DNA of 64,000 bases, from contig NZ_JACJRV010000002.1 in the NCBI RefSeq assembly GCF_014697475.1, positions 185,515 to 249,514 on the forward strand, read 5' to 3'. The DNA is from Nostoc sp. FACHB-152. GTDB lineage: Bacteria; Cyanobacteriota; Cyanobacteriia; Cyanobacteriales; Nostocaceae. Made by a program: the position numbers and the translations under genes. Shown one piece after another: positions 10,680 to 30,871 of the stretch. A model generated the notes under the pieces. The model was not told the DNA's origin, ran no database searches, and saw only the letters and a program-made list of their open reading frames with translations. Position 1 is the first letter of the stretch. Each line of letters opens with the position of its first letter.

Positions 10680-11996
10680 TTAATAAATTCTCTCTACTTC
10701 ATCTACCTCTTTGGGAACCCCAGCCGTTAGCACTTCGTGTCCTGTAGGTGTAACCAACACATCATCTTCAATCCGAATCCCAATACCAATCCAACGCGGG
10801 TCTGTTGGTGGTTGGTCTTCGGCTAGTTTCGTATCTGGGACAATATAAATTCCCGGTTCCACTGTCAACACTTGACCGGGTTGCAAAATCTGCGGTTTAT
10901 CATCACCGTGTTGATACACACCTACATCATGAACATCCAAGCCTAACCAATGGCTGGTGCGATGCATATAGTATGGTTTGTATTTTTCTTCTTCAATGAG
11001 TTTATCAACTTCGCCTTTAAGAATGCCAAGGTCAACTAAACCTGTGGTAAGGACGCGCACGGCGGTATCGTGAACTGATTTGAAAGTATTACCTGGTTGG
11101 ACTTGAGCGATCGCTTGTTTTTGCGCTTCTAATACAATTTCATATAATGCCTTTTGTTCTGGGGTAAACTTGCCACCGACAGGAAATGTGCGGGTGATGT
11201 CAGAGTTGTAATAGCCATAAGCACAACCAGCATCAATTAATAGCAAGTCTCCATCTTGCATTTGACGTTGATTTTCGATGTAGTGGAGAACGCAAGCATT
11301 CACACCAGAAGCCACGATAGAAGGATAAGCTGGCCCCATTCCACCCCGCAGACGAAAGATGCGTTCAATCTCGGCTTGGATTTCGTACTCATAACGTCCG
11401 GGTTTGGCGATCGCCATTGCTTGATTATGTGCTTCAATAGCGATCGCAGCTGCTTGGCGCATCAGTTCTAATTCGGCTTCTGTTTTCACCAGCCTCATAC
11501 TGTGAAGCACTGTACAGGTATCTTCGATAGCAATTGGCCCTGTACCCCGCTTGGGATAAGTCCGCAGTAGACTTTGGTAATGATGGAGAATTTTTTCATT
11601 AAAACCGCGATCGCGGCCTAAGTGATAATAAATGCGATCGGCTTTTTCTAAATATTGCGGCAACTTTTCGTCTAGTTCGTTGATGGGATAAGCTTCATCC
11701 GCACCATAAATCTCTTTGGCTGCATCTACCCCACAACGATAACCAGACCAAACTTCCTTCTCCCGATCCTTTGGCTGAACAAATAAAACAAATCGATGTT
11801 CTGGATGATGAGGTGTTAATACTGCAACCGCTTCGGCTTCATTGAATCCAGTCAAATAAAAAAAATCGCTATCTTGACGATAAGCATATTCGACATCGTT
11901 GTGCATTACTGCCATTGGCGCACTCCGAAAAATTGCAGTGCCATTACCAATTTTTGCCATTAACTGTTCGCGGCGCTGCCGATATTCTAATTGCAT
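10680..11996 (-). CDS. pepP: Xaa-Pro aminopeptidase (aminopeptidase P)
   Basis: 438 residues, cytoplasmic, M24B family; removes the N-terminal residue from peptides with proline in second position. The N-terminal half (YRQRREQLMAKIGNGTAIFR to about 170) is the non-catalytic domain with the DSDFFYLTGF signature. The C-terminal pita-bread domain carries the metal ligands in LLLIDAGCAYGYYNSDITRTF (two Asp), SHWLGLDVHDVG (His), LTVEPGIYI (Glu) and IRIEDDVLV (Glu), which bind two Mn ions in the family. Length and order are standard. Single gene, converging on the hairpin at 10626. Confidence 0.94.
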   Translation of the reverse strand: MQLEYRQRREQLMAKIGNGTAIFRSAPMAVMHNDVEYAYRQDSDFFYLTGFNEAEAVAVLTPHHPEHRFVLFVQPKDREKEVWSGYRCGVDAAKEIYGADEAYPINELDEKLPQYLEKADRIYYHLGRDRGFNEKILHHYQSLLRTYPKRGTGPIAIEDTCTVLHSMRLVKTEAELELMRQAAAIAIEAHNQAMAIAKPGRYEYEIQAEIERIFRLRGGMGPAYPSIVASGVNACVLHYIENQRQMQDGDLLLIDAGCAYGYYNSDITRTFPVGGKFTPEQKALYEIVLEAQKQAIAQVQPGNTFKSVHDTAVRVLTTGLVDLGILKGEVDKLIEEEKYKPYYMHRTSHWLGLDVHDVGVYQHGDDKPQILQPGQVLTVEPGIYIVPDTKLAEDQPPTDPRWIGIGIRIEDDVLVTPTGHEVLTAGVPKEVDEVERIY

Positions 11997-12572
11997 ATTG
12001 GTTCAATTTGTGAACTTATTGTATTATTTTACACATTTAACAACTATAGGCTAAACAGATAAAGCCTCTGTGTAGTTGCTTGTTTAAGTTATTTTAACTA
12101 AATATTTATCGCTCTTCTAGTCATTAATTATCTCAGAGTGCAGATGTTACTGATTTGAGGATTGATCTAAATTAGATCCCCCATTGACTGCCTCAAAGAT
12201 GCAGTATAAAGCATCAATTTTTTGTATATTTATAGAAAAAATGTTTTGAAATCAGCATTTTGTTATGAATATTTTGTATTTATTGAGCAGCTATATTTTT
12301 TATTACTGCTAACTAAATAACAAATGTTTTTTATATATAAAAAACATGACATAGACAAAATATGCTGACAAATTTAGATATTGATTATCAAGGGCTTGCA
12401 AAAAATCAAGAAATCATTTAAAGCAAATTTTCTATGTAAATAAAGACAAATATTCATTTTTAGAAAATGTTTACAACAGAACAATAAAAGATGAATAACT
12501 GTTATTTAATTACAGAAATCAAAGTGGTCAGCAGGTTAAAACTTTGAGAACAACCAGTGATAAAAACACACT
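11997..12572. other. AT-rich spacer with perfect 24-nt palindrome
   Basis: 576 bases with no gene. Very AT-rich. At 12324-12347 ATGTTTTTTATA is followed directly by its exact reverse complement. This spacer must contain the promoters of pepP (-) and the FG-GAP gene (+); I see no clear consensus boxes. Confidence 0.6.
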
Positions 12573-18784: not shown

Positions 18785-20470
18785 ATGTCGGAAGAAGATC
18801 TCCGTGCCGCAAGGCTGGAAAAAGTAGACCAGATCAAGCAGTTAGGGGCTAATCCCTATGCCTATCGTTGGGAATCTAGCCATCACGCAGCACAGTTGCA
18901 AGATAAATTTGCTGATTTAGCCAACGGTGAAGAAGTTGATTTAGACGTTGCGATCGCCGGACGGATTATGGCGCGGCGTGTTTTTGGTAAATTAGCATTC
19001 TTCACCTTGCAAGACGAAACTGGTAATATACAGCTTTATCTAGAGAAAAGTCGGATTCAAGAAAGCATGGCAGAGATTGATGCTGATGCTTTCAACCACC
19101 TCAAGCAACTTACAGATGTAGGCGATATTCTAGGCGTTAAAGGTACTATTAAACGGACTGAAAAGGGCGAGTTATCAGTCTACGTCAAACAATACACCAT
19201 CCTCACAAAATCCTTACTGCCCCTACCCGACAAGTGGCATGGATTGACAGATATTGCTAAACGCTACCGTCAGCGTTACGTTGACTTGATTGTTAACCCC
19301 GAAGTCCGGCAAACTTTTCGCCGTCGCGCCCAAATTACCGCAGGTATTCGCCGCTATTTAGAACAGCGAGATTTTCTCGAAATTGAAACGCCAGTTTTGC
19401 AAAGTGAAGCCGGGGGTGCAGATGCACGTCCCTTCATCACTTACCACAACACCCTAGAAATGGAATTGTATCTGCGAATTGCTACAGAACTCCATCTCAA
19501 GCGGTTGATTGTCGGTGGTTTTGAAAAAGTGTTTGAATTAGGGCGAATTTTCCGTAATGAGGGAATTTCTACCCGCCACAACCCCGAATTTACCACAATC
19601 GAACTTTACCAAGCCTACGCCGACTACAACGATATGATGGCGTTGACGGAAGGAATTATTACCACCGTCGCCCAAGAAGTTCTCGGCACATTGCAAATCA
19701 CCTACCAAGGCGAAACTGTAGATTTAACACCACCTTGGCGACGGGTGACAATGCAAGATGTAGTTAAAGAAGCTACAGGCTTAGATTTCAATTCCTTCCA
19801 AAGTTTGGAAGACGCAAAAGCCGCAGCTAAAAATGCTGGGATTCCTGGAGTAGATGAAGCCCAATCAATTGGTAAGGTACTAAATTTAGCCTTTGAAGAA
19901 AAGGTAGAAACTAACTTAATTCAGCCTACCTTTGTCATTGACTATCCGGTAGAAATTTCGCCATTAGCAAAACCGCACCGTTCTCAACCCGGTTTAGTAG
20001 AACGATTTGAGTTATTTATTGTGGGACGGGAAACTGCTAACAGTTTCTCAGAATTGACAGACCCTATCGACCAACGAGAACGTCTCGAAGCCCAAGCAGC
20101 AAGAAAAGCAGCTGGTGATTTAGAAGCCCAAGGCGTAGACGAAGATTTCCTGACAGCGTTGGAATATGGAATGCCACCCACAGGCGGTTTAGGTATTGGA
20201 ATTGATCGGTTAGTAATGTTATTAACTGATTCTGCCAGTATTCGGGATGTGATTGCTTTCCCCTTACTCAAGCCGGAAGGCAGCTTTATTAAGGAATTTC
20301 GCTATGATGCAAAAACTCAAACACTGACCATTGAATTTAACAGTGGAGGTGTGTACGAATATTATAAAGTACCACCTGAAGTCAAAGTCGGTCTAGAGAA
20401 CGCACCGTCTGATGGTCAATACTTCAACAAGTTCATTAAAGGGAAATTTAAGTATGAACAATTGAGTTAA
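18785..20470 (+). CDS. lysS: Lysyl-tRNA synthetase with C-terminal KTSC domain
   Basis: A class II synthetase that attaches lysine to tRNA(Lys). 561 residues, longer than the usual ~500. The anticodon-binding OB fold is at about 55-160 ([20 protein letters not shown]). Class II motif 2 is [20 protein letters not shown] and motif 3 is [14 protein letters not shown]. Residues 499-561 (from [20 protein letters not shown] to [10 protein letters not shown]) form a KTSC domain with the central YEYY. KTSC is named for its occurrence at lysyl-tRNA synthetase C-termini; RNA binding has been suggested for it. ATG 18785 is the only good start. Confidence 0.96.
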
Positions 20471-23649: not shown

Positions 23650-26600
23650 CTAAACCAAAGCCTCACTACAAATAATTATAGGAATTGCCTGCGATAACCT
23701 CGGCAAATCATGTTCTAGCAACTCTTTCATATTATGTTGATTATAAATATGTACGAGTTGCTTAAACAATTCTTCACCTGTGAAAGCATCTCGCCGCAGT
23801 TTATTTAACTCTCTATTAATAGCTTGATTCACCGAAGCACGAAAAGCTTTTTCTAAAATATTGATTTGGCTTTTTAAATTTTCGTCAGCAGTTGATTTAA
23901 AAAACATCCTCAATTCTCGCAGAATATATCTCTGTCCTTGAGTTAAACCTTGACTAAACTCTCTTTCGGCTTGACGATGTTTCACTTCTTCTGCAAATAG
24001 ACGTTTGACTTGCATCACAGCAGCGTTATGGTCTTTGGGAAGCATCAAAGTAGGGGTAGTATCATCAGCTTTAATTGCACCTAATATCCGAGGGATATCT
24101 CTAGAAACTATTTCACCTTGATTATCTAATAAAAATAGTTGCTGATAGCCTTTAATATCAGGTCGATTAGGATCAGAAGCTTCACAGAAAATATATGTAC
24201 CCTTGTTCATCGAAAATTTAGCCGTGCGAATACCATGCGGTAAATTGGCGATGCGTTCAAATTCTCCAGGGTCTTCTTTTTGTAACTTTCTCAAAAGTTC
24301 TTCGGCTTCATTCAAATCTAAGAAATTATCTTCATCTTCGTTATCAAATAGACTCAACTGTTTACCATTTTGTTCGTAAATGGCATACATTGCTTCTTCA
24401 TTCAGTTGTTCTGTTTTGTCAAGAATAGCAGCATCTTCGCCAATAGTGTCGTGAATTTCTTGGATTCGGTTTTTCAGCTTTTGTTTTAATCCTAAATTAC
24501 GTTCAATTCCGAGTTCTGGTAAAAAATTATAGCCATAAATTACATCTTTTTCACTACCAATGCGGTCAATACGCCCAAAACGCTGAATTAACTTAACTGG
24601 GTTCCAATGCAAATCATAATTAATGATTAAATCACCATCTTGCAAGTTTAAACCTTCTGCTAATACATCAGTAGCAATCAATGTATTCAGTTCTGATTCT
24701 CCGGGTTTAAATTTATATTCTTTGTTTGCATTAGGCGCAAATCTGCCTACTACCCTTGCTTTATTTTTGCTGCTACCGCTATAAATTACATCAATATCTT
24801 TATGTTGACCATCTGGGTTTAAATTATCGAATAAATATTTGGCGGTGTCAGCATATTGAGTAAATATCAATCGTTTTTTATCTCGAAGATTGGGTTTAGA
24901 TAACCATTGAATTAAAGTCTGTAGTTTAGTATCTTTATCAGGGGTGATGGGTTCGACTAAAACCAAAATTTTTTCCAGCAGTTTTATATCATGTTCAATA
25001 TGCTGTTGTAATTTCTCCGCGTCAAAATCAGATAAATCATATTTATTAGATACTTGTTTTAATGCGTCCATCAAATCTTGTTCTTCTGCTTGGTTATAAT
25101 CTTCCGACAGCAGAGTTTGGGCTTCTTCTCCAGCAGGTACAAATCCTCGAGATAATGCTTTTAAAAACCTTTCATGCACTATCAGTAATTTTTTAATAGT
25201 TTGTCTAAAAGCGTAAACACTCGACTCAAAGCGTTTGAATAATAATACTCGCATTAAACCCCGCAAGTTAGAACCTGCACGTTGTAAAGTGTTATAAGGT
25301 TCTTGCTTTTGTTTATCTTTTAAAACATAGTTCCAGAGTCCATAACGCGCATAGCTAAGTTGATTTTGCGCCCCCTTACCTTGTAGGGAAGGGGGTTTGG
25401 GGGTTAGGTTCTTACGCGGTTTACCCATGTATTGGCGTAAATCTTGATAAAGTCCTTGGTATGTATCTTCAATGCTGTATTCAATAGTTTCTAGTTCGCG
25501 TTTCGGGAAAAAGCGATGTTGACCACCAACGATGACATAAGCACGTCGGGTTCCGTCTAGGTATTCTCTAAAATTAGACGGGTCAACTTTTTGATGAGTT
25601 TTAGAATCAAAACCGTAAAAACGTAAGATATGATTGCGGGTACGACGAATTAGAATATGAGAAAGTAATTCTGGTAATTTTTTAACTCCTTTATCTACTA
25701 ATTGAAAGTATTCTTTTAAATTAGGTGGGTCTATTGGTAAATCGGTTTTATCATCTTGGTGAAATAATTTTAACTGGTAGTAAATGTCCCAAGCACTTTT
25801 ATTGCGCGGAGTAGCTGTTAATAAGCAACAACGTTTACCAGCAGCTAAAAAAGCTTCGACTACTTTGTATCTTTGAGTTGTGTGATTTCTTAAGTTATGG
25901 CTTTCGTCTATTAGCACGAAATTTCTATCTTTAAATCGAAAGTCATCTAATAAAACTTTGACTCCGGTTTCATCATCTTCTTTCAACATTCCCATTGAAA
26001 GAACACGAGCGTTTAGGTGGTAAACTTCATTATATCTATCCCACATTTCTATTAGTGGTGCAGGGCAAATAATTAAAGGACGGGCGCGTTCTTCTTGTTC
26101 AAACCTTTTAACTATTGCAGCACCAATAAAACTTTTACCTAACCCTACGACATCGCTAACAAAAGCACCGCCATAATCTCTGATATTTTGGACGGCATTA
26201 TTAACGGCTACTTTTTGAAATTCAGCTAGTTGTTTACTAATTTCGTCATCTATAATTAAATTTTTAGGTGCGGTATCTTCTAACCTGTCTTTGACTAAAG
26301 TATATAGAGTTTTATAATAAACATCATAAGGACGAACAGGTAAACCTGCCCAAGATTGCTTCATTTCTCTCATTAAGGCTTCGTTAAAATCTTCCGCTTC
26401 ATCCCAGAGTTCATTAAACCATTGGGTTAATTCTGTATGGTTATCGTTACCATGAATCATGACATTTAATTCTGTATTATGAGTAATTCCAGAGAGTGTA
26501 AGATTAGATGAACCGACAATGGCAATTCCTTTTTCGGTACGTTCTAAAGGTCTACCTTTATTATCAAAAACAGTACCGTAGTCAAAAATATAAGCTTTAG

Positions 26601-27036
26601 CGTGTAAATTCCCTTTAGTATAAACGCGAACTTGAAGCCGTTTTTCTTCTATCATTTGTACTAAACTTTTGACTAGTGTTTCGGCTTCATCAGTTTGATC
26701 CATTAGTTCTATGCTGGAACGAATATTCTCTGCTGTTTTATCTGTTATTTGTTTTTCTTGACTACGCTTAGGATATTTTTGCGCTTCTATTTTATCGGTA
26801 ATTAATTCTAATCTGCGATAGCCTTGGGCAATTTGTTCAATAGTTTCGCGGTTGCTAGTGTTGCCAATTAATAAGCGTAATTCTTTAATATTAGCAAGGC
26901 GTTCTGCAATGGCTGTAAAGCCGGAAATGAAGAAATAACCTACTGCGAAATGTGCTGCTTCTGATGAGTCGAGAATGCGTTTTATTTGGTCTACTAGCTT
27001 GTGGTTGCGATTGTCTATAATGTCATGTATAGGCAT
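23650..27036 (-). CDS. PLD-nuclease/SF2 helicase fusion (defence-type)
   Basis: 1128 residues. N-terminal phospholipase-D-like domain (about 1-220) with H145-x-K147 in LHAKAYIFD and GSSNLTLSG at 175-183. Then an SNF2-like superfamily 2 helicase: GLGKS motif I at 298-302, DESH motif II at 377-380, LTATPRN motif III at 407-412, and motif VI QRFGRIDRIG from 818. The C-terminal ~250 residues are helical. Such nuclease-translocases belong to phage defence and restriction systems (e.g. DrmC and DrmD are separate PLD and helicase proteins of DISARM). Residues 543-555 (NLTPKPPSLQGKG) are encoded by a dispersed repeat inserted in frame. The Eco57I methyltransferase gene lies upstream on the same strand. 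Confidence 0.9.
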   Translation of the reverse strand: MPIHDIIDNRNHKLVDQIKRILDSSEAAHFAVGYFFISGFTAIAERLANIKELRLLIGNTSNRETIEQIAQGYRRLELITDKIEAQKYPKRSQEKQITDKTAENIRSSIELMDQTDEAETLVKSLVQMIEEKRLQVRVYTKGNLHAKAYIFDYGTVFDNKGRPLERTEKGIAIVGSSNLTLSGITHNTELNVMIHGNDNHTELTQWFNELWDEAEDFNEALMREMKQSWAGLPVRPYDVYYKTLYTLVKDRLEDTAPKNLIIDDEISKQLAEFQKVAVNNAVQNIRDYGGAFVSDVVGLGKSFIGAAIVKRFEQEERARPLIICPAPLIEMWDRYNEVYHLNARVLSMGMLKEDDETGVKVLLDDFRFKDRNFVLIDESHNLRNHTTQRYKVVEAFLAAGKRCCLLTATPRNKSAWDIYYQLKLFHQDDKTDLPIDPPNLKEYFQLVDKGVKKLPELLSHILIRRTRNHILRFYGFDSKTHQKVDPSNFREYLDGTRRAYVIVGGQHRFFPKRELETIEYSIEDTYQGLYQDLRQYMGKPRKNLTPKPPSLQGKGAQNQLSYARYGLWNYVLKDKQKQEPYNTLQRAGSNLRGLMRVLLFKRFESSVYAFRQTIKKLLIVHERFLKALSRGFVPAGEEAQTLLSEDYNQAEEQDLMDALKQVSNKYDLSDFDAEKLQQHIEHDIKLLEKILVLVEPITPDKDTKLQTLIQWLSKPNLRDKKRLIFTQYADTAKYLFDNLNPDGQHKDIDVIYSGSSKNKARVVGRFAPNANKEYKFKPGESELNTLIATDVLAEGLNLQDGDLIINYDLHWNPVKLIQRFGRIDRIGSEKDVIYGYNFLPELGIERNLGLKQKLKNRIQEIHDTIGEDAAILDKTEQLNEEAMYAIYEQNGKQLSLFDNEDEDNFLDLNEAEELLRKLQKEDPGEFERIANLPHGIRTAKFSMNKGTYIFCEASDPNRPDIKGYQQLFLLDNQGEIVSRDIPRILGAIKADDTTPTLMLPKDHNAAVMQVKRLFAEEVKHRQAEREFSQGLTQGQRYILRELRMFFKSTADENLKSQINILEKAFRASVNQAINRELNKLRRDAFTGEELFKQLVHIYNQHNMKELLEHDLPRLSQAIPIIICSEALV
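25367..25412. repeat. CCCCTTCCC-type dispersed repeat inside the helicase gene
   Basis: The stretch CCCCCTTACCTTGTAGGGAAG followed by GGGGTTTGGGGGTTAGG is the C-rich palindromic repeat common in cyanobacterial spacers (GGTTGGGGGTT...GGGAGGGG type). Here it is inside a coding region and keeps the reading frame, encoding NLTPKPPSLQGKG. Confidence 0.75.
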
Positions 27037-27065
27037 AATCTTGATATGGTAGTTTGAATAAAAAT

Positions 27066-27197
27066 ATGAGTTATTCGGAAGAGCTTGAGAAGTTGATAGA
27101 ATCTAACACTACAGCAATTCAAGCTTTAACTAATTTAGCCAAGAGGATTTTTATAAAAGTAGCTAGTGATGTATCAAATATTTTTAGATCCCCCTAA
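27066..27197 (+). CDS. Small open frame ending inside a repeat (possibly truncated gene)
   Basis: 43 codons beginning MSYSEELEKLIESNTTAIQA and continuing LTNLAKRIFIKVASDVSNIF, then RSP and a stop that is part of the GATCCCCCTAA repeat at 27187. The first 40 codons look like a helical protein of the type seen at the start of many small cyanobacterial proteins. The gene starts 30 bases from, and divergent to, the helicase gene. It was probably longer before the repeat inserted. Identity unknown. Confidence 0.4.
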   Translation: MSYSEELEKLIESNTTAIQALTNLAKRIFIKVASDVSNIFRSP

Positions 27198-27263
27198 ATC
27201 CCCCTTAAAAAGGAGGACTTTGAGCAATGATTCCCCCCTTTTTAAGGGGGGCTAGGGGGGATC
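27187..27263. repeat. GATCCCCC...GGGGGATC MITE-like element
   Basis: Ends GATCCCCCTAAATCCCCCTT and (reversed) GATCCCCCCTAGCCCCCCTT, each continuing into AAAAAGG. It is 77 bases long with a short AT-rich centre and no coding capacity. A second, interrupted copy is at 63424-63539. Confidence 0.8.
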
Positions 27264-27392
27264 AAGATCCAGTTTGATACTTTTCAAACAATCTCTAATG
27301 CAATTTAGATATTGAAATACTTAGAATCTCGTAATCAATAAGTTATGTAAGTGGAATTCTACTTTTTTTAGCCAAATTTACTACTGATGTAT

Positions 27393-27425
27393 ATATCCCC
27401 GACTTCTTCAAGAAGTCGGGGATAT
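27393..27425. repeat. Dispersed hairpin family A, copy 2
   Basis: ATATCCCCGACTTCTT (27393-27408) and AAGAAGTCGGGGATAT (27410-27425) form a perfect 16-bp stem. It lies 37 bases beyond the truncated PIN gene and could terminate that operon. Confidence 0.75.
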
Positions 27426-27461
27426 GATTTTAGTTTCAAGATGTTAAAACTTCACTAAGAA

Positions 27462-27575
27462 TTACAACAGATAAATTAGAGACGTTGCGAAAGCCTTTAT
27501 CATTTCAACGCTATAAATAACTGGTGATGTATCGACATATACTAAACTTGAATCTGGAATATTTAATCTTCCCAT
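27462..27575 (-). pseudogene. Truncated PIN-domain toxin
   Basis: ATG 27575 opens MGRLNIPDSSLVYVDTSPVI then YSVE. This is the N-terminus of VapC-like PIN toxins, with the first active-site Asp in VYVDTSPVIYSVE. It then runs into MIKAFATSLIYLL and a stop after 37 codons, so about 100 residues including the other acidic residues are missing. The start overlaps the end of the antitoxin gene by 13 bases, as normal for such pairs. The ribonuclease must be inactive. Confidence 0.75.
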
Positions 27576-27802
27576 GATTCACGTTCCTCTTTTAGATACT
27601 TGTCTACTTCTTCAGCAGTTTTGAAAAGTTGTCTCCCAGGTAACTCGTTAAGAATATCTACTGCTGAACGCTTTTTAGTTGCTGCTTTCTCTGGCAAAAT
27701 CACGAATACGTCTACGCTATCGCCTATTTGTGCTTCGGGGACTTCAATTTCTATTTTGTTTCCTGGTAAAACTTTGGTGGTGATACGTAAAGCTGATTGC
27801 AT
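27563..27802 (-). CDS. Antitoxin of a PIN toxin-antitoxin pair
   Basis: 79 residues from ATG 27802 (MQSALRITTKVLPGNKIEIE), preceded by GAGGAAAAAA as ribosome-binding site; the open frame continues upstream into the methyltransferase stop but that part is not needed. The N-terminal half has the LPGNKIEIEVPEAQIGDSVD pattern of a small beta-barrel antitoxin paired with PIN toxins in cyanobacteria. The C-terminal half (SAVDILNELPGRQLFKTAEE ... ERESWED) should wrap the toxin. The toxin downstream is truncated, so this is an orphan antitoxin. Same strand as the methyltransferase, 58 bases after its stop. Confidence 0.75.
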   Translation of the reverse strand: MQSALRITTKVLPGNKIEIEVPEAQIGDSVDVFVILPEKAATKKRSAVDILNELPGRQLFKTAEEVDKYLKEERESWED

Positions 27803-27860
27803 AGTTTTTTCCTCAATTTTTCTTAATACTGTAGGTGAGATTGTTGTTTTCTCTATTGTC

Positions 27861-29741
27861 CTACAGTCCATAGAGGGCGGCGACGCGTTGATCTATTTCT
27901 TTCTCATATACTTCACAGTTAACGCCTTTTGCGTCTAGGCATTTTTGCACTAGTTTGGATATTGCTTCGCGTTCAGAAGTTGATGCGTTGGGGATAGGTA
28001 CTTTATTCATGTAAATACTGCGTAATTCGATGCTTTTACCTAATAGTTCAGAACAGTGGCTTTTAAGGTAATCCCATATCAATGAAGAATTTAGTATTCC
28101 TAAGAGGTAAAGTTCTGGGATAGGAATAATAAAAGATTTATCATTAATAAATACTCCTTTTGTATCTAGGGCAAATCGCGGTTCTTTAGCGATAACAGGA
28201 TAGATAATTTTAGGCTTACTAAAAGCATCTACATATTCTGCTCCATAACGTGCCATACACCACCAGTTATATCGACCGTCTCGACATTCAGGGCGTGCTT
28301 TTAGTTCTTGTTCCCATTTAAGAAGATGATTTTTTACAGCAGGATAATTATCTATTTTTAAATCCCAAGGAGAATAAATGAACCATTTATCTTTATAATT
28401 TATCTGCCACTTACGAACATCATCGCCAATAGCTAACGGTTTAATGATTTCTGCACTTTTAGGGTCTTGATTAATAAGTTCTGCCCGTTTTGCCCCATCA
28501 ATAATAAATGCTTTATTAAAACCAGTTTTTACACCGTAATAAATATTTCCGTTGACATACTCGCCCAATTGGATACCTGCTGCTTCCATCTTTCGTAAAC
28601 GATTGACAGAGGTTGTATCAGTTAAAGTCCAATTTTCACCTTTTAAAGCATTATAAGGTAATATATGTCCGCTATCTTGAATAATTTGTTTTACATCAGG
28701 GTAAGGAGATTTCAAAGATTTTACTTGTGTAAAAGTGGGTAAAACATCATTTGATTGTTGATTCTGAGCAATAAAAATCATCACTAAGACAGCAGCACTT
28801 TGGAATACTGGTAAATCTCCAAAATCAGTAATACTGTGAACTTGGCAATTATCAGCAATATGCTTTTTCAACTTATCCCCATATTTTGCGCGAAACCACT
28901 TATTAGATGAAATAAACGCTAACATCCCACTTGGTTTTAAAAGCTGCAAAGCACGGGCATAAAAGAAACAATATAAATCAGATGTACCTGTATAAACAGA
29001 TGGATAAACTTTTTGTAATGTTGGCTTTAAATCTTTAATCAATTCTTGTCTAACATAAGGCGGATTTGCAACCTGAATATCAAACCCACCATCTGCAAAC
29101 ACCTCTGCAAATTCTACCGCCCAATCAAAACCTGTTGGTGCTTGAGTGCTTCCATTAGTTATTAGCCGAATTTGTGTTTTTAATTCATTGATTTCTGCTT
29201 CTAATGTTCGCTTTTTACCTCCTTCATGGGTTCGCATATATTCCGCTTTCTTTTGACTGTATTGATTAACTAATTCAGTCCTAATCATTCCAGTCGTCGC
29301 AGGGCTAGGTGCAGTTAAACTATCACCAATCTCAATTTTATATTTCAGGTTTGGCAGTGGGTTTGGTTTTGCACCTTGATATTCAACAGCTAGTGATAAC
29401 CATAATCTCAACCGGGCAATATTAACTGCAAATACATCTTTATCTATTCCATATAAGTTATTTTCGATAATTTCTAACTTGCGCCGATAAACAGTATTTG
29501 AATCTAATCCTTTTATGGCAAACAAACACTGGCGTAAATCTAGTAATTCGTGCAGCATACCTAATAAATAGGCTCCACTTCCGGCAGCTAAATCACAACA
29601 TCTGACTTTGCGTAAACTTTCTAATATTGCCTCTGGGTTAACTAAATTATCTGGATTATGTTCATCAACAAATAAATCTATACTATCGCTTGATTCTGTT
29701 GTAACTTGAGTTTTTAAATATCCTTTTAATGCCTCCCGCAC
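27861..29741 (-). CDS. Eco57I-type adenine DNA methyltransferase, C-terminal part (split by frameshift)
   Basis: 626 codons as read from a GTG at 29741. The SAM-binding motif I is DLAAGSGAYL (50-59) and the catalytic motif IV is NPPY (226-229, in IQVANPPYVRQELI), typical of gamma-class N6-adenine methyltransferases of the Eco57I/PglX kind. A probable target-recognition domain follows (YYGVKTGFNKAFIID; LKARPECRDGRYNWWCMARY). The frame continues that of the upstream open frame (29726-30871): one base is missing in the codons after SFM, where homologues should read SFMCREALKGYL. The GTG inside the overlap could still restart translation, giving two polypeptides. Likely a pseudogene or a split enzyme. 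Confidence 0.85.
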   Translation of the reverse strand: MREALKGYLKTQVTTESSDSIDLFVDEHNPDNLVNPEAILESLRKVRCCDLAAGSGAYLLGMLHELLDLRQCLFAIKGLDSNTVYRRKLEIIENNLYGIDKDVFAVNIARLRLWLSLAVEYQGAKPNPLPNLKYKIEIGDSLTAPSPATTGMIRTELVNQYSQKKAEYMRTHEGGKKRTLEAEINELKTQIRLITNGSTQAPTGFDWAVEFAEVFADGGFDIQVANPPYVRQELIKDLKPTLQKVYPSVYTGTSDLYCFFYARALQLLKPSGMLAFISSNKWFRAKYGDKLKKHIADNCQVHSITDFGDLPVFQSAAVLVMIFIAQNQQSNDVLPTFTQVKSLKSPYPDVKQIIQDSGHILPYNALKGENWTLTDTTSVNRLRKMEAAGIQLGEYVNGNIYYGVKTGFNKAFIIDGAKRAELINQDPKSAEIIKPLAIGDDVRKWQINYKDKWFIYSPWDLKIDNYPAVKNHLLKWEQELKARPECRDGRYNWWCMARYGAEYVDAFSKPKIIYPVIAKEPRFALDTKGVFINDKSFIIPIPELYLLGILNSSLIWDYLKSHCSELLGKSIELRSIYMNKVPIPNASTSEREAISKLVQKCLDAKGVNCEVYEKEIDQRVAALYGL

Positions 29742-30871
29742 ATAAAAGAAACTATTGGTTTAGGTGTATAATAACTTCCAGATTCATGTCTACCTGTAAC
29801 AAGTTCCTCGAAAACTTTGCCTAACATTTCGGGATCTACAGCCACTTCAACGTCAAGCGGTGTACTTTCGGTAACGGTGAAAGCAAAGCGTTGAAATAAT
29901 TCATGCAAAATACTATCTATACACTCATCAGGAATAATTATTTGCGGATTTTTATCATCTTTGTCTTGTTCAAAAAGTCCGCCATTTAAATACGGAACAC
30001 TACCAATTAAGTCTTTGAGAAAACCACCGTTATTAATTCCGGTAATGTCATATTCTGGGCTGTTATTTAGTCCGGAAAAGAATAGGTGTGAAAGTCTATC
30101 TCGATAAAAATTGTATTTAGATTCAGCTTGATTAACTTTATAGTCTTCCCATAAAGCTTTTAAGTAATCATTTCTTTGCTGAAATTGCAACCAGCCTTTT
30201 TTCTCAATAAAAACAATAAACATCAAACGGTTAAATAACTTTTGCGTAAATAACCGCTTATGTTCATCACCACCAATTCCTTGAATTAATGCTTCAACTT
30301 TCTCAAAGGTACGCCGATATTCTCTGAAAAACTCCTGCGTTACAGCTTCTACGTCAAAAGCTTCATCATGGCGTGTTTGAATATCTAAGGGTGATGCGTT
30401 GGGTATTTGTTCTAAATCTAATAAACTAATTCTTTCTGTGGCTGTGCGTAGTTGTTCCCCTTGTCCAACTGTTATCCGGCGAAAGAGTTTACGCTTTTGT
30501 ATTGAGTTATCGTATTTAACGTTTAAAAAATGCCAGTGCGATTGTGATTGGTTAGAAAATATGAATAATGTATAAGGATGTTCTTTGAGAAGTTGATTAA
30601 CAATTCTTCTTTCAGCTTCTCTGGATAAGTTTTCTGATTTTAGTTTTGTATAAATTACATGAAAAGCATTGTTAGCCCCTCCAACCGCTAATAATAAAGG
30701 GTCGCCTTCAATCTCATCTTTAACGATATCCGTGAATTTGCGGCGAGAAAGTTCTTGATTTATTCGTTCGTAATTTAGTTGACTCCAGAATAATTTTTTT
30801 AATGAATCAAGGTTGTTTAAATTCTTGAGGGAATTTTGTACTGATTGTTGTAGTGTAGATGTGGCAATCAT
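29726..30871 (-). CDS. Eco57I-type methyltransferase, N-terminal part
   Basis: 381 residues from ATG 30871. The N-terminal domain (FWSQLNYERINQELSRRKFT ... HWHFLNVKYD) and a helical region (DEHKRLFTQKLFNRLMFIVF IEKKGW) precede methyltransferase motif X, GSYYTPKPIV (365-374). It then ends in CGRH after a frameshift relative to the catalytic part. No PD-(D/E)XK nuclease motif is evident at the N-terminus, so restriction would depend on the PLD-helicase partner. Combined length with the next frame is about 1000 residues, the normal size of this enzyme class. Confidence 0.85.
   Translation of the reverse strand: MIATSTLQQSVQNSLKNLNNLDSLKKLFWSQLNYERINQELSRRKFTDIVKDEIEGDPLLLAVGGANNAFHVIYTKLKSENLSREAERRIVNQLLKEHPYTLFIFSNQSQSHWHFLNVKYDNSIQKRKLFRRITVGQGEQLRTATERISLLDLEQIPNASPLDIQTRHDEAFDVEAVTQEFFREYRRTFEKVEALIQGIGGDEHKRLFTQKLFNRLMFIVFIEKKGWLQFQQRNDYLKALWEDYKVNQAESKYNFYRDRLSHLFFSGLNNSPEYDITGINNGGFLKDLIGSVPYLNGGLFEQDKDDKNPQIIIPDECIDSILHELFQRFAFTVTESTPLDVEVAVDPEMLGKVFEELVTGRHESGSYYTPKPIVSFMCGRH

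What the first reader, a model, noticed from the sequence alone, without database searches (positions are those of the whole stretch)
23650..30871. Compact PLD-helicase plus Eco57I methyltransferase locus
One operon-like region on the minus strand encodes a methyltransferase (motif X GSYYTPKPIV, motif I DLAAGSG, NPPY) and a single protein fusing a PLD nuclease (HAK, GSSN) to an SF2 helicase (GLGKS, DESH, QRFGRIDR). DISARM class 1 keeps methylase, SNF2 helicase and PLD as separate genes beside DrmA and DrmB, and none of the last two is seen here. This could be a reduced two-gene defence system. The seen part is the domains; a relation to DISARM or restriction is inference.
Basis: partly seen in the sequence, partly recalled or inferred. 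Interest (0 to 1): 0.75.

Follow-up and report, generated by a model that had tools for sequence, protein, structure and literature searches.

The report
Split methylase and motor-nuclease restriction pair
The locus is a decayed copy of a widespread, apparently unnamed two-gene restriction-modification system in which one protein recognises and marks DNA and a second, a DNA motor fused to a nuclease, probably destroys unmarked DNA.

Summary
The helicase (23650-27036, minus) is one 1128-aa protein: HKD/PLD nuclease plus SNF2-type motor, with invariant catalytic motifs. The methyltransferase (27861-30871) lies in two overlapping frames here, while 13 of 17 close relatives have one ORF, so this copy is probably broken.

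It is not a reduced DISARM: the same genome carries a separate five-gene DISARM operon. Helicase plus Eco57I/IIL-type methyltransferase is a conserved unit of its own. In 46 of 46 distant loci with at least 4 kb on both sides, the methyltransferase lies nearby on the same strand, in many bacterial phyla, archaea and viral contigs.

Most likely mechanism (inferred): ATP-dependent restriction-modification. The methyltransferase, whose N-terminal nuclease-like domain shows no conserved catalytic residues, recognises and marks DNA. The SauUSI-like HKD-motor cuts unmarked DNA. Main support: the methyltransferase specificity domain is hypervariable between orthologues while the helicase is evenly conserved.

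Ten literature searches did not show this exact pair described. SauUSI, Type ISP, BREX-related Type-2, PbeABCD and ARMADA each differ. New variant of a known kind. In two viral-contig relatives the methyltransferase's N-terminal domain is fused to a sigma-70 factor.

The parts
23650..27036 (-). HKD (PLD)-SNF2 helicase effector, 1128 aa
26404..26784 (-). PLDc_2 nuclease domain match (residues 85-211; HAK 145-147, GSSN 175-178)
   Evidence: Pfam; invariant H145, K147, G175-N178 in A3
24556..26232 (-). SF2/SNF2 motor (residues 269-827; GLGKS, DESH, QRFGRIDR)
   Evidence: Pfam ResIII, SNF2-rel_dom and Helicase_C; invariant motif residues
29726..30871 (-). Methyltransferase, N-terminal piece (381 aa): nuclease-like N-terminal domain, helical region, motif X
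27861..29741 (-). Methyltransferase, C-terminal piece (626 aa) in another frame: motif I, NPPY, TaqI_C specificity domain
   Evidence: Eco57I 1.9e-43, TaqI_C 1.3e-12; contiguous in one ORF with the N-terminal piece in 13 of 17 relatives
27993..28439 (-). Target recognition domain (TaqI_C, residues 435-583 of the C-terminal piece)
   Evidence: Pfam; the hypervariable region of orthologues
27563..27871 (-). Antitoxin-like ORF, 102 aa, between the two genes
   Evidence: tblastn match in 14 of 17 orthologous loci; followed by a PIN-domain gene in 10 of 17; no Pfam match of its own
27462..27575 (-). 37-aa stub resembling the start of the PIN toxin of relatives
   Evidence: the relatives' PIN gene is 126-148 aa where full length; resemblance judged by eye
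27187..27263 (-). Dispersed palindromic repeat upstream of the helicase
   Evidence: inverted repeat I1; core pattern found 16 times in the genome with up to 2 mismatches, control pattern 0

Best explanation
This is a copy, probably a decaying one, of a two-gene ATP-dependent restriction-modification system. (1) The methyltransferase is built like a Type IIL enzyme (MmeI/DrdV kind): a restriction-fold-like N-terminal domain without recognisable catalytic residues, a helical region, an N6-adenine methyltransferase domain and a C-terminal target recognition domain. It finds the site and methylates host DNA. (2) The partner is a SauUSI-like HKD nuclease fused to an SNF2/SF2 double-strand DNA motor without a recognition domain of its own. 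It is probably recruited by the methyltransferase at unmethylated sites, translocates using ATP and cuts. In effect it is a Type ISP or Type I logic split over two polypeptides, with the nuclease swapped for an HKD one. Shown here: domains, motif conservation, gene linkage, TRD hypervariability, the local frame break. Inferred: complex formation, methylation, translocation, cleavage and anti-phage function. The window's own copy is probably inactive, because its methyltransferase is split over two frames.
For: Linkage: 46 of 46 loci with full flanks and 40 of 52 with short flanks carry the methyltransferase within 10.5 kb, 86 of 86 on the same strand, gap at most 150 bp (or overlapping) in 59 of 86. 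Background: 4 Eco57I matches in this 8.6-Mb genome, about a 1% chance of lying within 10.5 kb of a given gene (my arithmetic). Distance matrices of 91 pairs correlate, r = 0.83, none of 2000 permutations as high; 0.74 beyond 30% divergence. TRD: among 14 orthologous methyltransferases, 40-residue windows lying within 801-980 average 0.38-0.57 identity (minimum 0.09), those within 461-660 average 0.75-0.92; 13 orthologous helicases average 0.78-0.95 with no hypervariable block (TRD placed by Pfam). A nuclease with its own specificity would be expected to vary with its methyltransferase. N-terminal domain: no invariant D, E or K in residues 1-170 of 38 sequences. Effector: SauUSI, an ATP-dependent PLD-motor endonuclease shown to translocate and cut (PMC7913695, abstract and passages), is among the top structural matches. 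Five of 18 loci with a full-length helicase ORF, the window included, lack an intact single-ORF methyltransferase, so the helicase alone seems tolerated, as expected if it needs the methyltransferase to act.
Confidence: 0.7

Rival explanations
1. A reduced DISARM: DrmMI plus a DrmD/DrmC fusion that has lost DrmA and DrmB.
For: Same kinds of domains; DrmD profiles match the helicase at 3.2e-34 and DrmMI profiles the methyltransferase at 8.7e-35.
Against: Stronger matches to other profiles (HKD+Snf2 1e-85; REase_MTase_IIG 7.6e-86). A five-gene DISARM sits on another contig of the same genome. The DrmB-type domain PF09369 is on C132 and C18 only in this genome and on no relative's contig within 20 kb of the helicase. 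[quoted passage not shown]
Confidence: 0.04
2. Two independent systems side by side: a self-contained Type IIG/IIL enzyme and a modification-dependent (Type IV, SauUSI-like) HKD helicase.
For: PADLOC calls the methyltransferase REase_MTase_IIG; SauUSI works alone.
Against: 46 of 46 linkage and same strand; no catalytic residues conserved in the methyltransferase's N-terminal domain; no SRA or other reader domain matched in the helicase at E <= 0.01.
Confidence: 0.1
3. Self-mark-dependent defence of the Pbe or BREX kind: the partner needs the methyl mark on the host in order to act, or blocks replication without cutting.
For: PbeA is an HKD-SF2 protein whose system acts only with host phosphorothioation and without visible viral DNA cleavage (PMC6459918 passages). 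It would also explain why helicases without a methyltransferase are tolerated.
Against: PbeA's partners (ABC-ATPase, DndE-like protein) are not between or beside these genes in the window; HKD residues are invariant, which suggests that cleavage matters.
Confidence: 0.12
4. BREX-related Type-2 system (N6-methyltransferase, DUF499 ATPase, HKD-SNF2 helicase, DUF3780).
For: Same HKD-SNF2 effector layout (PMC12839542 passages and section 31).
Against: No DUF499 in this genome. In the 17 of 53 genomes with DUF499, none lies within 19 kb of the helicase on the same contig; one (G163) could not be placed. No DUF1156 matched in the methyltransferase, although the paper gives it as typical of these systems (section 29).
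Confidence: 0.04

Closest known systems
SauUSI (Type IV, PLD-ATPase-SRA; PMC7913695 abstract and passages)
   Same: N-terminal PLD/HKD nuclease fused to an SF2 motor; structural match over both parts
   Different: SauUSI carries its own SRA recognition domain, cuts methylated DNA and has no partner methyltransferase; here no SRA matched and a methyltransferase is linked
Type ISP enzymes (LlaGI, LlaBIII; PMC3874165 passage)
   Same: Nuclease, translocase, gamma-type methyltransferase and C-terminal TRD acting as one unit (here by inference)
   Different: ISP is one chain with an Mrr-like PD-QXK nuclease; here two genes and an HKD nuclease
Type IIL/IIG enzymes (MmeI, DrdV)
   Different: N-terminal domain without conserved catalytic residues; works with a separate motor-nuclease
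BREX-related (BR) Type-2 systems (PMC12839542) and the COG1743-DUF499-SNF2/nuclease operon (PMC7641849 passages)
   Same: HKD-SNF2 helicase in one operon with an N6-methyltransferase
   Different: They need DUF499 (and DUF3780) and a DUF1156-type methyltransferase; absent here
PbeABCD / CxC-ABC-ATPase systems (PMC6459918, PMC10853773 passages)
   Same: PbeA is HKD plus SF2; profile match 6.4e-17
   Different: ABC-ATPase and DndE partners, phosphorothioate mark in the studied case
DISARM class 1 and ARMADA (PMC12458937 passages)
   Same: SNF2-type helicase paired with an adenine methyltransferase
   Different: They have the YprA-family DrmA/ArmC helicase; PLD separate (DrmC) or absent
CglI / NgoAVII (PMC7913695 passage)
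   Same: PLD nuclease plus SF2 motor in an R-M system
   Different: PLD and B3 recognition domain on one subunit, motor on another; 5mC methyltransferase (the last recalled)

Membership tests
DISARM class 1 | DrmA and DrmB in the locus | tested here: not met
   Flanking genes are TPR, sigma-r4-like, LysRS, fructosamine kinase and M16; the DrmB-type domain is only on C132 and C18; the genome's own DISARM is on C132
DISARM class 1 | SNF2 helicase and Eco57I-like methyltransferase | tested here: met
Type IIL/IIG R-M enzyme | MTase with helical region and C-terminal TRD | tested here: met
   (in this copy split over two frames)
Type IIL/IIG R-M enzyme | Active N-terminal PD-(D/E)XK nuclease | tested here: not met
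   No invariant D/E/K in residues 1-170 across 38 sequences; a misaligned motif in so divergent a domain is not excluded
Type ISP | Single polypeptide with Mrr-like nuclease, motor, MTase and TRD | tested here: not met
   Two genes; HKD nuclease
Type ISP | ATP-driven translocation and cleavage between head-to-head sites | not testable with these tools
   biochemistry needed
SauUSI-type (Type IV) | PLD nuclease fused to SF2 motor | tested here: met
SauUSI-type (Type IV) | SRA target recognition domain | tested here: not met
   No SRA match at E <= 0.01 in Pfam
BREX-related Type-2 | DUF499 ATPase in the locus | tested here: not met
BREX-related Type-2 | HKD-SNF2 helicase | tested here: met
BREX-related Type-2 | DUF3780 protein | not tested
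   not searched
PbeABCD | PbeC ABC-ATPase and PbeD/DndE next to PbeA | tested here: not met
   No such gene among the annotated neighbours; no genome-wide search made
CglI/NgoAVII | PLD nuclease and motor on separate subunits, B3 domain | tested here: not met
   Fused; no B3 match at E <= 0.01

The most novel reading that the evidence does not exclude
A large, unnamed class of split restriction-modification system found in bacteria, archaea and viral contigs. A Type IIL-like enzyme whose own nuclease has died has outsourced cutting to a separate HKD-SNF2 motor, so that a single evolving TRD sets the specificity of both. In some branches the methyltransferase's dead-nuclease N-terminal domain is a portable docking module that has also been attached to a sigma-70 factor, linking recognition by the system to transcription.
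Probability: 0.45. Interest if true: 0.68.

Novelty: new variant of a known kind. Interest (0 to 1): 0.5.

Why it matters
It would show how a methylating restriction enzyme can lose its own nuclease and borrow a motor-nuclease. It also predicts that TRD swaps alone re-target the whole system. The prediction can be tested by methylome sequencing of strains with an intact pair.

Tried and rejected
DISARM remnant: rejected. BREX-related Type-2: rejected on DUF499. Clean empty site in a congener: rejected. In G125 (L199) the flanking genes are 769 bp apart (11313 to 12083), but blastn finds 50 nt at 90% to the helicase gene and 41 nt at 95% to the antitoxin start on either side of a Uma2 ORF, so it is a deletion scar. 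The other 9 of 10 congeners did not show the TPR gene in the stretch fetched.

The sigma/ATPase proteins of clade B (L057, L059, L061, L062): a narrower iterated profile matched their N-termini to the methyltransferase N-terminal domain (E 1e-25 to 1e-32), but a broader profile and a methyltransferase-only HMM did not; I do not count them as fusions of that domain. A search for more relatives of the L160 sigma fusion in viral contigs found only itself.

Papers: passages only for PMC12839542 (plus sections 29 and 31), PMC7641849, PMC2292703, PMC10853773, PMC12458937, PMC6459918, PMC12707154, PMC7913695, PMC3526280, PMC3874165; all others listing only.

Rows dropped: L156 (same contig as L034) before the count; window, L053 and L156, and loci without long ORFs of both genes; 501 or more relatives beyond the best 80. 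A second helicase copy in G076 with four internal stops was not fetched.

Full report
OBSERVATION. Pfam finds PLDc_2, SNF2-rel_dom and Helicase_C in the first, Eco57I, N6_Mtase and TaqI_C in the last. The first piece (P0003) has no Pfam match but matches PADLOC Type IIG profiles. Because motif X ends one ORF and motif I is in the other, the gene as assembled does not encode one protein. In relatives the two halves are contiguous in one frame: 13 of 17 loci with a full-length helicase; the other four have a methyltransferase that is split (L038), truncated (L040, L043) or missing (L044). Whether the window's break is biological or an assembly error cannot be settled here, but the neighbourhood looks decayed: the PIN toxin gene is a 37-aa stub, the Uma2 gene found in 8 of 17 orthologous loci is absent, a dispersed repeat sits upstream of the helicase, and a repeat-like stretch of about 45 bp is inserted in frame inside the helicase (residues about 543-561).

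RECURRENCE. In 145 genomes of the family, 39 have a helicase match at E <= 1e-60. Of 40 fetched loci, 31 hold at least part of the methyltransferase. The hits form a close group (76-90% identity) and more distant ones (33-37%). A scan of viral contigs gave 19 loci. Of these 99, one duplicate (L156) was dropped. Of the remaining 98, 46 have at least 4 kb on both sides and all 46 carry the methyltransferase; of 52 with shorter flanks 40 do; all 12 misses are cut by a contig end. One of the 12 (L122) shows the start of the methyltransferase's N-terminal domain at its contig end (E 1e-4). The 86 are all on the same strand, 66 downstream and 20 upstream of the helicase; 59 have a gap of 150 bp or less, or overlap. 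The profiles were iterated on the same ORF set, which affects how distant a methyltransferase is recognised but not where it lies; seven viral loci (L165, L166, L168-L171, L173) match only weakly (1e-8 to 1e-20) and may be another branch. This genome has 4 Eco57I matches in 8.6 Mb, so chance proximity is about 1%. Distance matrices of 91 helicase-methyltransferase pairs correlate at 0.83 (none of 2000 permutations; 0.74 beyond 30% divergence).

MECHANISM. In 14 orthologous methyltransferases the region of the TaqI_C specificity domain is hypervariable (window means down to 0.38, minimum 0.09), while the catalytic part and the 13 partner helicases are evenly conserved. This is the expected pattern if one TRD serves both modification and restriction, as in Type I, ISP and IIG systems, and is hard to reconcile with a helicase that reads the site itself. 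Full-length helicase ORFs persist in 5 of 18 loci, the window included, where the methyltransferase is broken or gone, consistent with a nuclease that is inert without its partner, though also with a nuclease that has lost activity. By analogy with SauUSI (PMC7913695 abstract and passages) I propose ATP-driven translocation and double-strand cleavage of unmethylated DNA. Complex formation, methylation and cleavage are inferred.

COMPARISON. The genome's own DISARM (DrmD, DrmMI, DrmA, DrmB, DrmC on C132) shows that the pair is a different thing. BREX-related Type-2 systems have the same effector layout but need DUF499; none is in this genome, and in the 16 genomes with DUF499 that could be placed it is never within 19 kb of the helicase on one contig. 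PbeA, ARMADA and the COG1743-DUF499 operon share parts. Ten literature searches in an open-access library showed no paper that describes this pair alone; subscription papers, REBASE and supplementary tables were not searched.

VARIATION AROUND THE PAIR. Close orthologues often hold an antitoxin-like gene (14 of 17), a PIN gene (10 of 17) and Uma2 (8 of 17) between the two genes. Elsewhere a DprA-like gene occurs in 15 of 98 loci, directly after the methyltransferase ORF (gap -40 to +5) in 9 of them (Pfam run on 4 of 15, two above the cut-off). An AAA_21 gene is in 8 loci and a DUF4276 gene in 5 (one of each run in Pfam, DUF4276 below its cut-off). Two viral contigs (L034, L160) carry a protein whose first 150 or so residues match the methyltransferase N-terminal domain (4e-12, 6e-35; HMM built without them) followed by sigma-70 regions 2 and 4; its nearest named NCBIfam defence relative is MzaA (3.3e-33 for L034).

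VERDICT. New variant of a known kind, with a well-supported linkage and an inferred mechanism; the copy in this window is probably non-functional.

Noticed in passing
L034:6737-8023 and L160:13145-14335: Proteins of 428 and 396 aa with the methyltransferase N-terminal domain fused to sigma-70 regions 2 and 4, inside the helicase-methyltransferase gene clusters of two viral contigs; in L034 the gene overlaps the helicase start, in L160 a DprA-like gene.
   Followed up: partly
L057:1631-8794, L059, L061, L062 upstream of the helicase; L179:3839-9487 downstream of it: Giant sigma-70 plus AAA-ATPase proteins (1882-2401 aa) beside HKD-SNF2 helicases of cyanobacterial relatives where no methyltransferase was found in the stretch; a search with the C-terminal part found it in 3 of 292 genomes of the phylum, one of them (G348) without sigma or helicase.
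   Followed up: partly
G000:C132, loci L180 and L181: A complete DISARM operon (DrmD, a 418-aa protein without PADLOC match, DrmMI, DrmA, DrmB, DrmC) elsewhere in the window's genome.
   Followed up: yes
L199:11313-12083 (congener G125): Deletion scar: same flanking genes as the window, with a Uma2 gene whose end runs into a helicase fragment, so the locus once stood there and was lost.
   Followed up: yes
L053 (G061:C36): One 1534-aa ORF that joins a near full-length methyltransferase to the C-terminal half of the helicase, apparently by deletion of the HKD and first motor parts.
   Followed up: no
window 25360-25410: A repeat-like C-rich stretch of about 45 bp is inserted in frame in the helicase gene; it is absent in the aligned relatives.
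   Followed up: no
downstream of the methyltransferase in L100, L105, L108, L109, L118, L134, L158, L161, L162: A recurrent DprA-like third gene that follows the methyltransferase with gaps of -40 to +5 bp.
   Followed up: partly
L056, L058, L060 downstream of the helicase: A 96-140 aa gene cluster; the L056 member is an EVE domain (3.9e-17), a reader of modified bases.
   Followed up: no
window 18785-20470: A class II lysyl-type tRNA synthetase ORF with a C-terminal KTSC domain.
   Followed up: no
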